From positions 310,001 to 374,000 of the forward strand of contig NZ_JAGUCO010000002.1 in NCBI RefSeq assembly GCF_018271995.1: DNA of 64,000 bases, read 5' to 3'. Both the position numbers and the translations under genes were made by a program. Positions 37,820-39,052 of the stretch are shown here, piece by piece. The stretch comes from Carboxylicivirga linearis. GTDB taxonomy: Bacteria > Bacteroidota > Bacteroidia > Bacteroidales > Marinilabiliaceae. Each line of letters begins with the position of its first letter. The first letter of the stretch is position 1. A model generated the notes under the pieces. It made no database searches. It saw only the letters and a program-made list of their open reading frames with translations, and was not told where the DNA came from.

Positions 37820-38728
37820 TTACTTTAAACCTAAAATTGATGCAATAATTGCCATACGGGCATAAACTCCGTTTTCAGCTTGCTGAAAGTAATAGGCCTT
37901 TGGATTATCATCCACATCGGTATGAATTTCATTTACCCGTGGAAGCGGATGCAAAATGCGCAGGTTATCTTTTGTATTATTCAACATTGAATTACGCAAT
38001 ACGTATACATTTTTCACTTTTTCGTATTCGATCGGATCAGAGAATCTTTCGCGCTGAACACGTGTCATATATAAAATATCGGCAGCCGAAATTATATCTG
38101 TAAACTCGCTGTGCTCATAATACTTAATTCCTTTCGAATCAAGAAACAACTTGTATTCATCAGGCATTTTTAATGAATCGGGAGCAATAAAATTAAAGGT
38201 TGTGTTAAAATGCGACATGGCCATTAACAATGAATGTACTGTACGACCGTATTTTAAATCACCAACTAAAAATATATTCAAATTATCTAATGTTCCCTGT
38301 GTTTTGTATATCGAATACAAATCAAGTAATGTTTGGGTTGGATGTTGGTTAGCTCCGTCGCCAGCATTTATAATAGGTACACTAGCTTGTTCTGAAGCAT
38401 ATCGGGCGGCACCTTCCAATGGATGGCGCATCACAATTAAATCGCTATAATTACTTACCATTATAGTAGTATCTTTCAACGTTTCTCCCTTAGTAGTAGA
38501 GGAAGATGATGAATCGGAGAAGCCAACAATTCCACCTCCTAAACGGGTTATAGCTGTCTCGAAACTTAAACGTGTACGAGTTGATGGCTCGAAAAACAAA
38601 CTGGCCACAACTTTACCATCCAGAAGCTTTTGATTTGGATTGGCTTCAAATTCTGCCGCCAACTCCACTATACGCATGATTTCATCTTTTGAGAAATCGG
38701 TGATGGATACTAAACTTTTGTTCTTCAT
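37820..38728 (-). CDS. pyrB: Aspartate carbamoyltransferase catalytic subunit
   Basis: 302 residues. [17 protein letters not shown] is the carbamoyl-phosphate binding signature; [30 protein letters not shown] and [11 protein letters not shown]-type strings ([13 protein letters not shown]) complete the active site. First committed pyrimidine step. The gene begins 11 nt after the stop of a leader ORF that crosses an intrinsic terminator, so expression is probably governed by UTP-sensitive attenuation. Confidence 0.97.
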
Positions 38729-38739
38729 TTGTAATTGTT

Positions 38740-39009
38740 TTAGCGATTAATCGCACGCAGAGGCACGATTGATATTTGGTTTATTTCTTTGGTTCGATAA
38801 TGAAAATTTGGAAGAAAGAGAACAATGAATTTCACAAAAAAAAGACCTGATAAAAAAATCAGGTCTCTTAAAAAATATCTAAAAATGAAAAATTGCTCAT
38901 TGTCAATAACACAGGCATTAACGAAAGAAAGATAATTGGCGGGCCTGCGGTCCTCCGGATTATTTTGATGGCGTTTTCGTAGCCAATATTTGTTTGTTTC
39001 TTTCTTCAT
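38740..39009 (-). CDS. pyrL: pyrBI leader ORF (attenuator-spanning)
   Basis: An 89-codon ORF starting [13 protein letters not shown] and ending just before pyrB. From about 38892 to 38870 the non-template strand is U-rich, coding FFIFRYF. The ORF then runs straight through a strong intrinsic terminator and stops beyond it. That is the layout of E. coli pyrL: when UTP is scarce polymerase pauses in the U tracts, the translating ribosome catches up, unfolds the terminator and lets pyrBI be read. The protein has no recognisable domain. The ATG follows the predicted transcription start by only about 5 nt, so it may be near-leaderless. A real small protein is the alternative. Confidence 0.6.
38836..38866 (-). 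terminator. Intrinsic terminator (attenuator) inside the pyr leader
   Basis: On the minus strand AGACCTGAT (38866-38858) pairs with ATCAGGTCT (38851-38843), 9 bp stem with a six-U loop, followed by a run of U (38843-38836). It lies 108 nt upstream of the pyrB ATG and downstream of a U-rich tract, inside the leader ORF. Confidence 0.85.
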
Positions 39010-39018
39010 TCCGGAGTT

Positions 39019-39052
39019 CAAAGATACGTAAATTTAATATTAAATACCAAGA
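39019..39052 (-). promoter_or_regulatory. pyr leader promoter
   Basis: On the minus strand TTG near 39050, about 21 bp spacer, TATCTTTG (39026-39019). Predicted start near 39014. It is the only full promoter match in the region and drives the leader ORF and, after antitermination, pyrBI. Confidence 0.6.

What the first reader, a model, noticed from the sequence alone, without database searches (positions are those of the whole stretch)
38740..39052. pyrBI-type UTP-sensing attenuator with leader ORF in a Bacteroidota genome
Seen: a full TTG/TAnnTTTG promoter, an 89-codon ORF, a U-rich tract coding FFIFRYF, then a 9 bp terminator hairpin with U6 loop and U8 tail inside the ORF, and the ORF's stop 11 nt before pyrB. 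Known: E. coli pyrBI uses a leader peptide read through the attenuator, with polymerase pausing at U tracts when UTP is low. Inference: the same logic has arisen here independently; the leader sequence is unrelated to PyrL and starts almost at the 5' end of the RNA. I am not aware of this being described in the phylum.
Basis: partly seen in the sequence, partly recalled or inferred. Interest (0 to 1): 0.75.

Follow-up and report, generated by a model that had tools for sequence, protein, structure and literature searches.

The report
pyrBI attenuator with near-leaderless leader gene
In front of its pyrimidine-synthesis genes a Bacteroidota bacterium has an RNA stop signal inside a tiny gene, and translating that gene probably decides whether the stop works; the layout resembles two separate E. 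coli pyrimidine gauges combined in one.

Summary
Upstream of pyrBI (minus strand) lie a TTGG/TATCTTTG promoter, an 89-codon ORF, a U-rich tract and a terminator inside the ORF, whose stop is 11 nt before pyrB. The 14 genomes held for the genus all keep it. Of 157 distinct pyrB upstream regions 75 have a terminator (1.1% of shuffles do) and in 47 of the 75 an ORF runs through it (7.4 expected), while hairpin and peptide sequences differ between clades. A pyrBI-like attenuator is well supported; UTP sensing is untested. A second layer was missed: the leader ATG sits 9 or 7 nt after the promoter box, so the leader is nearly leaderless; bases 6-9 after the hexamer are YYYR in 23 of 25 clusters (10 of 106 control boxes); the window's TCCGG equals E. 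coli pyrC at the same positions; and the RNA 5' end can pair downstream, masking the AUG. Best reading: a pyrimidine-sensing attenuator run by leader translation, perhaps gated by NTP-dependent start-site choice. New variant of a known kind; not found in ten searches of a partial library.

The parts
39019..39050 (-). Bacteroidota-type promoter: TTGG 39050-39047, 20 nt, TATCTTTG 39026-39019
   Evidence: Sequence; box exactly 9 nt before the leader ATG, as in 36 of the 43 spanned leaders with a strict box
39011..39015 (-). Initiation region T6 C7 C8 G9 G10, numbered after the TATCTT hexamer; predicted alternative starts C7 (39014) and G9 (39012)
   Evidence: YYYR at bases 6-9 in 28 of 30 distinct sequences vs 10 of 106 control boxes; same TCCGG at the same positions in E. 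coli pyrC. Start sites not mapped
39006..39015 (-). 5' arm of the predicted 5'-terminal stem (UCCGGAAUGA), includes UG of the leader AUG
   Evidence: RNAalifold consensus, pair counts
38954..38962 (-). 3' arm of the predicted 5'-terminal stem (UAAUCCGGA); one of the nine pairs is lost in the window
   Evidence: partner at ATG+50 in the 14 genus leaders and L097
38740..39009 (-). Near-leaderless leader ORF, 89 codons, through the terminator, stop 11 nt before pyrB
38870..38892 (-). U-rich tract (putative UTP-sensitive pause region)
38836..38869 (-). Intrinsic terminator (attenuator): hairpin 38869-38840, T8 run 38843-38836
37820..38728 (-). pyrB, aspartate carbamoyltransferase catalytic chain
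   Evidence: Pfam PF02729, PF00185
37330..37788 (-). pyrI, aspartate carbamoyltransferase regulatory chain
   Evidence: Pfam PF01948, PF02748

Best explanation
It is a cis-acting, pyrimidine-responsive transcription attenuator of pyrBI that works through translation of a nearly leaderless leader ORF. When a ribosome translates the leader close behind RNA polymerase, it occupies the RNA of the terminator hairpin and transcription reads into pyrBI. When the leader is not translated or the ribosome lags, the hairpin forms and transcription stops about 107 nt before pyrB. Low UTP would favour read-through by pausing polymerase in the U-rich tract so that the ribosome catches up, as in E. coli pyrBI. 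In addition, when pyrimidine NTPs are plentiful, transcription would start at pyrimidine 7 and the 5' end would pair with a downstream segment and mask the AUG; when they are scarce it would start at purine 9, lose those pairs and expose the AUG, as in E. coli pyrC. Shown: the anatomy, its conservation and its non-randomness. Inferred: termination, coupling, UTP sensing and start-site choice.
For: Terminator plus spanning ORF far above shuffles and above a same-genome control. Of 56 leaders with TAnnTT(T/C)(G/A)-N3-YYYR-(0-4 nt)-ATG upstream of a terminator, 54 have an ORF that reaches within 15 nt of, into or through the hairpin, 7.5 expected. That start element occurs in 57 of 87 regions with a terminator and 4 of 104 without. 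A strict box lies 9 (36), 7 (6) or 6 (1) nt before an in-frame ATG in 43 of 50 spanned leaders; 3.9% of 673 other ATGs have a box at such a distance. U enrichment before the hairpin also outside the genus group, p 1e-6. Mild constraint on the peptide (pooled dN/dS 0.52 before, 0.73 after the hairpin; 13 leaders) suits a role for the act of translation. 5' stem: the consensus fold finds only this stem and the terminator; a perfect complement of the six bases before the ATG lies downstream in 15 of 25 cluster representatives, P 5e-5 against shuffles, and in 31 of 47 leaders; the partner is fixed at ATG+21 in 8 of 8 members of genus g18 with a YYYR start. In the genus and two near genera (16 leaders) mean pairing of the AUG region is 0.69 for start 7 and 0.31 for start 9. 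PyrR: 0 of 71 family genomes over cut-off. The same script recovers E. coli pyrBI.
Against: No expression, start-site or pausing data. The 5' stem is weak or absent in several clusters: 10 of 25 representatives and 16 of 47 leaders, 4 of 14 in the genus itself, lack the perfect hexamer complement; against dinucleotide shuffles only 4 of 25 clusters fall below z -1.645 (combined z -2.29); start 7 and start 9 differ little in several clades. Within the genus covariation is one both-sided change, no more than shuffling gives (175 of 500). E. coli pyrBI is not U-rich by my 40-nt measure (0.35), so that measure is not diagnostic. 28 of 75 terminators lack a spanning ORF by the strict test. Transcription-translation coupling in Bacteroidota is assumed.
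Confidence: 0.72

Rival explanations
1. Plain pyrBI-type attenuator: UTP-sensitive pausing in the U tract alone sets the ribosome-polymerase distance; the YYYR region only focuses initiation on purine 9 so that the leader is leaderless, and the 5' stem is incidental.
For: U tract, spanning ORF and terminator suffice for the E. coli logic; the 5' stem is weak in many clusters.
Against: Bases 7 and 8 would then not be transcribed, yet both pair with the downstream arm in 14 of 14 aligned leaders, with one double change at base 7, and complementarity is in excess over shuffles.
Confidence: 0.3
2. Translation-capacity attenuator: read-through simply follows how well the leader is translated (growth rate, supply of charged tRNA for frequent codons), not UTP.
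For: The U tract makes the leader Phe-rich, and openness of the ORF is its strongest constraint.
Against: No competing antiterminator appears in the consensus fold; the peptide is poorly conserved; a U-rich tract would need no conservation.
Confidence: 0.15
3. A protein regulator binds the leader DNA or RNA: PyrR-like, or a repressor at the two TCCGGA palindromes.
For: TCCGGA, a palindrome, occurs at the start region and about 56 bp further on in 7 of the 14 genus leaders.
Against: No PyrR over cut-off in 71 family genomes; no Rfam match at gathering score. In other clades the motif is CTAG, TTTGAT or TTTGGA with a matching partner at other spacings, which suits RNA pairing rather than one operator.
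Confidence: 0.07
4. Artefact: a terminator of the upstream unit and a chance ORF in AT-rich DNA.
For: A separate terminator-like site, apparently of the upstream gene, lies at 39114-39073.
Against: The attenuator lies downstream of the promoter; ORF, spacing and hairpin recur far above controls.
Confidence: 0.02

Closest known systems
E. coli pyrBI attenuator with pyrL (Roland, Liu and Turnbough 1988, seen only as a citation; passages on pyrL in PMC5021804)
   Same: Target operon; leader ORF running through the terminator and ending close to pyrB; U stretch before the hairpin; recovered by the same script
   Different: No similarity of leader peptides; leader nearly leaderless with a fixed 9- or 7-nt box-to-ATG gap; TCCGG start region instead of the AATTTG start that I recall for E. 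coli pyrBI; possible 5'-terminal stem over the leader AUG
E. coli pyrC and pyrD start-site switching (Wilson 1992, Liu and Turnbough 1994, Sorensen 1993, seen as citations; mechanism recalled)
   Same: TCCGG at bases 6-10 after the -10 hexamer; a 5'-terminal hairpin that needs the pyrimidine-started end
   Different: Here the masked start codon would be that of an attenuator leader ORF, not of the enzyme gene; NTP dependence untested
PyrR-dependent pyr attenuation
   Same: A terminator upstream of pyr genes; pyrR lies upstream of pyrB in other Bacteroidota (8 scanned of 29 loci)
   Different: No PyrR over cut-off in the family, no PyrR-site match in Rfam; matches outside the order are another PyrB type, 33-44% identical
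Leader-peptide attenuation upstream of amino-acid biosynthesis operons in Flavobacterium psychrophilum (PMC9723704, passages)
   Same: Leader ORF and attenuation in Bacteroidota
   Different: Reported there for amino-acid pathways; here no regulatory codon run and no antiterminator seen

Membership tests
E. coli pyrBI-type attenuator | Intrinsic terminator between promoter and pyrB | tested here: met
   By sequence; termination not measured
E. coli pyrBI-type attenuator | Leader ORF across the terminator, ending near pyrB | tested here: met
   Open in 14 of 14 genus genomes and 47 of 75 regions; translation not observed
E. coli pyrBI-type attenuator | U-rich pause region before the hairpin | tested here: met
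   E. coli itself scores like the control on this measure
E. coli pyrBI-type attenuator | UTP-dependent pausing and read-through | not testable with these tools
   Needs RNA data or in vitro transcription
E. coli pyrBI-type attenuator | Leader peptide related to PyrL | tested here: not met
   BLASTP 11.2 bits, E 1.8; so short a peptide can lose similarity, so common descent is not disproved
pyrC/pyrD-type start-site switch | Pyrimidines at bases 7-8 and purine at 9 after the -10 hexamer | tested here: met
   YYYR at 6-9 in 23 of 25 clusters; E. coli pyrC read
pyrC/pyrD-type start-site switch | 5'-terminal hairpin that depends on the pyrimidine-started end and masks the start of translation | tested here: inconclusive
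   Predicted in the genus, in excess overall, lacking in 10 of 25 representatives and 16 of 47 leaders
pyrC/pyrD-type start-site switch | NTP-dependent 5' ends | not testable with these tools
   Needs 5'-end mapping
PyrR attenuation | PyrR protein and its RNA site | tested here: not met
   0 of 71 family genomes over cut-off, 6 of 14 named controls over it; no Rfam match
trp-type amino-acid attenuator | Competing antiterminator and a run of regulatory codons | tested here: not met
   Consensus fold shows only the 5' stem and the terminator; conserved codons are few

The most novel reading that the evidence does not exclude
One leader integrates two pyrimidine gauges: NTP-dependent choice of start site decides whether a nearly leaderless AUG is exposed, and UTP-dependent pausing decides whether the ribosome then reaches the terminator in time. 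This would fuse the E. coli pyrC and pyrBI logics in a phylum where Shine-Dalgarno sequences are reported absent (PMC9723704, passage), and would show that tight transcription-translation coupling regulates genes in Bacteroidota.
Probability: 0.42. Interest if true: 0.85.

Novelty: new variant of a known kind. Interest (0 to 1): 0.7.

Why it matters
It offers a native reporter of ribosome-polymerase coupling in Bacteroidota; one search for coupling and attenuation in this phylum listed nothing on it by title or abstract. If the start-site layer holds, it is a striking convergence on the pyrC start region in a promoter of a different consensus, and a case in which the 5' end of a nearly leaderless leader RNA sets an attenuator. 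Because layout is kept while peptide, hairpin and stem sequences change, it also gives a search rule (box, N3, YYYR, ATG, ORF up to or through a terminator) for elements that sequence-based RNA families do not hold.

Tried and rejected
Rfam on the window at gathering score: 0 matches; relaxed search of the leader: 3 matches, each far below its gathering score. PyrR control: rejected. Peptide-specific action: little support, pooled dN/dS 0.52. Covariation within the genus: one both-sided change, not above shuffles. L098 was left out of alignment A2 because its partner is not at +50; in A1 it breaks 5 of the 8 tabulated stem pairs. L015 was dropped and from A1 as near-identical to L014. A scan of the whole own genome for the exact start pattern gave 6 matches, 3 for the reversed control; the other five head ORFs of 4-24 codons, so I see no regulon. 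Order-wide: the layout is mainly in the window's family (64 regions, 49 with terminator, 35 spanned) and elsewhere in 12 spanned of 26 with terminator of 93 regions, ten of these twelve in loci named as Prolixibacter, Prolixibacteraceae, Marinifilum, Labilibaculum or Ancylomarina; no locus named Bacteroides has a terminator by the same test. In one search the pyrB start of L224 was not located. Rows dropped before the count of 157: L002, L003 (paralogues), L147, L075 (too short), L067, L085 (gene start outside the locus), and duplicates. One search kept the best 80 of 585 relatives, and one search listed only part of its 376 matches, so the sample leans to close PyrB. The 600-nt and 340-nt contexts give 50 and 47 spanned leaders. 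Cluster labels are GTDB genus codes plus my own for other loci; I split one genus (g7) in two. The two misses are L122, a chance upstream match whose proper ATG does span, and L145. Literature: ten searches of a partial open-access library listed no description of pyrB attenuation in Bacteroidota; of the papers I saw listings, and passages only.

Full report
WHAT IS THERE. On the minus strand upstream of pyrB (38728-37820) and pyrI (37788-37330), both confirmed by Pfam, the sequence shows TTGG at 39050-39047, 20 nt, TATCTTTG at 39026-39019, then AACTCCGGA and an ATG at 39009. The ORF has 89 codons and ends with TAA at 38742-38740, 11 nt before the pyrB ATG. Inside it are a U-rich tract (38892-38870) and a terminator hairpin, 38869-38840, with a run of eight T. 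The 287-nt leader folds better than 196 of 200 shuffles. A second terminator-like site, 39114-39073, appears to belong to the upstream gene.

THE GENUS. The 14 genomes held for the GTDB genus (window included) all have the promoter box, the hairpin and an ORF open through it. The ORF ends between -23 and +11 of pyrB, in 9 of 14 with the stop overlapping the pyrB start (8) or 11 nt past it (1). Constraint on amino acids is mild: pooled dN/dS 0.52 before the hairpin and 0.73 after it, in 13 leaders.

BEYOND THE GENUS. I collected pyrB upstream regions from genus, family and order and the best 80 of 585 relatives in a named collection: 157 distinct after dropping unusable rows. With an RNAfold-based test 75 of 157 have a terminator within 330 nt; 1.1% of shuffles do. 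With the hairpin fixed and its flanks shuffled, an ORF with at least 20 codons before it runs through it in 47 of 75 (7.4 expected) and ends within -25..+15 of pyrB in 40 of 75 (3.4 expected). By family: 35 spanned of 49 with a terminator of 64 regions in the window's family, 12 of 26 of 93 elsewhere. Hairpins are different sequences in different clades (AGACCTGAT, AACCAACAG, TACCCAATCG types). In 464 kb of the window's own genome, window included, 6 of 43 intergenic terminators upstream of genes are spanned, p 3e-7. In 34 further regions, one genome per family of the order, two have a terminator spanned by the 20-codon test, so the element is lineage-restricted. In 80 genomes drawn from the phylum, 36 including the window's have a match at 1e-40; those outside the order are 33-44% identical. 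Eight upstream genes, picked for their length from 29 such loci, are all PyrR over cut-off. In the window's family 0 of 71 genomes have a PyrR over cut-off.

U TRACT. T fraction in the 40 nt before the hairpin: 0.478 in 16 leaders (genus plus L097, L098), 0.443 in 31 other spanned ones, 0.382 in 28 unspanned ones, 0.338 before 42 control terminators. For the densest 20 nt, p is 6e-8, 1e-6 and 0.057 against control. Against this, E. coli pyrBI scores only 0.35.

A NEAR-LEADERLESS LEADER. With longer context 50 leaders are spanned; in 43 a strict TAnnTTTG lies 9 (36), 7 (6) or 6 (1) nt before an in-frame ATG, against 3.9% of 673 other ATGs. As TAnnTTTG is reported at -12 to -5 in F. psychrophilum (PMC9723704, passage), the 5' UTR would be about 3-5 nt for a start at base 7. 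Leaderless messages are 5.5% there, and 5' UTRs under 10 nt about 3.7% in B. thetaiotaomicron (PMC7366714, passage).

THE START REGION. Numbering from the hexamer, bases 6-9 are YYYR in 28 of 30 distinct sequences (23 of 25 clusters) against 10 of 106 TAnnTTTG boxes upstream of genes in the same genome, and 2 of 34 that also have TTG near -33 (p 1e-15 by clusters). The 47 leaders were chosen for box and spacing, not for YYYR. The element with its ATG occurs in 57 of 87 regions with a terminator and in 4 of 104 without, and in 54 of 56 such leaders the ORF reaches within 15 nt of, into or through the hairpin, 7.5 expected. The window's TCCGG at bases 6-10 is identical in sequence and position to that of E. 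coli pyrC, read from the K-12 genome.

THE 5' STEM. The consensus fold of 15 leaders contains two elements only, the terminator and a stem joining the 5' end and AUG to a UCAUCCGG about 50 nt downstream. In 14 leaders 95.2% of cells pair, against at most 55.6% for slid versions; one pair shows a double change (L007, base 7); covariation is not above shuffles, most columns being invariant. Across clades, 5' ends fit their own downstream RNA better than swapped ones (1 of 5000 permutations), but against dinucleotide shuffles the combined z is -2.29. A perfect complement of the six bases before the ATG occurs in 15 of 25 cluster representatives (P 5e-5 against shuffled and 2e-4 against swapped), in 31 of 47 leaders and in 10 of 14 of the genus. 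In genus g18 the partner is at ATG+21 in 8 of 8. In silico, a transcript started at base 7 has the AUG region paired at 0.69, one started at base 9 at 0.31 (16 leaders of three genera); several other clades show little difference.

MECHANISM. Shown: anatomy, frame, spacing, start-region class and their conservation. Inferred: that the hairpin terminates, that a translating ribosome suppresses it, that UTP sets pausing, and that pyrimidine NTPs choose the start base. In E. coli, tight coupling across pyrL is needed to prevent the terminator (PMC5021804, passage). The 11-nt gap from leader stop to pyrB lies in the 11-14 bp peak reported for Bacteroidetes leader genes (PMC4833913, passage), so reinitiation at pyrB is plausible.

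NOVELTY. Ten literature searches listed no description; the library is partial. In the survey of premature terminators PMC2965389 the find call met no word beginning with Bacteroid, and pyr only in PyrR contexts. I file it as a new variant of a known kind.

Noticed in passing
L176 about 1370-1480 (own genome, upstream of carA): carA has a TACATTTG box followed by a 7-codon ATG ORF overlapping a hairpin (GCATTTATC/GATAAATGC) and T6, the ATG 2 nt inside a site 81 nt before carA: a possible second pyr attenuator.
   Followed up: partly
L180 about 1456-1470 (own genome, pyrE): pyrE has TACATTTG, CGAC, ATG: predicted leaderless.
   Followed up: no
L023, L025, L026, L029, L036, L039, L053, L059, L070, ATG+27 to +75: A second leader hairpin (GTGAA/TTCAC or GTAA/TTAC types) before the U tract; 48-nt segments fold at -6.6 to -12.4 kcal. 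Perhaps a pause hairpin.
   Followed up: partly
L140, L141, L142 upstream of pyrB: In genus g20 a YYYR start and an ATG 20 nt before pyrB form a short ORF ending on the pyrB start with no terminator between: perhaps start-site control alone.
   Followed up: partly
L100, L102, L105, L118, L033, L046, L232: Leader ORF stops just before or within the hairpin rather than running through it.
   Followed up: partly
L249, L254, L255, L257, L262, L266, L268, L274: In other Bacteroidota orders pyrR lies just upstream of a different PyrB type.
   Followed up: yes
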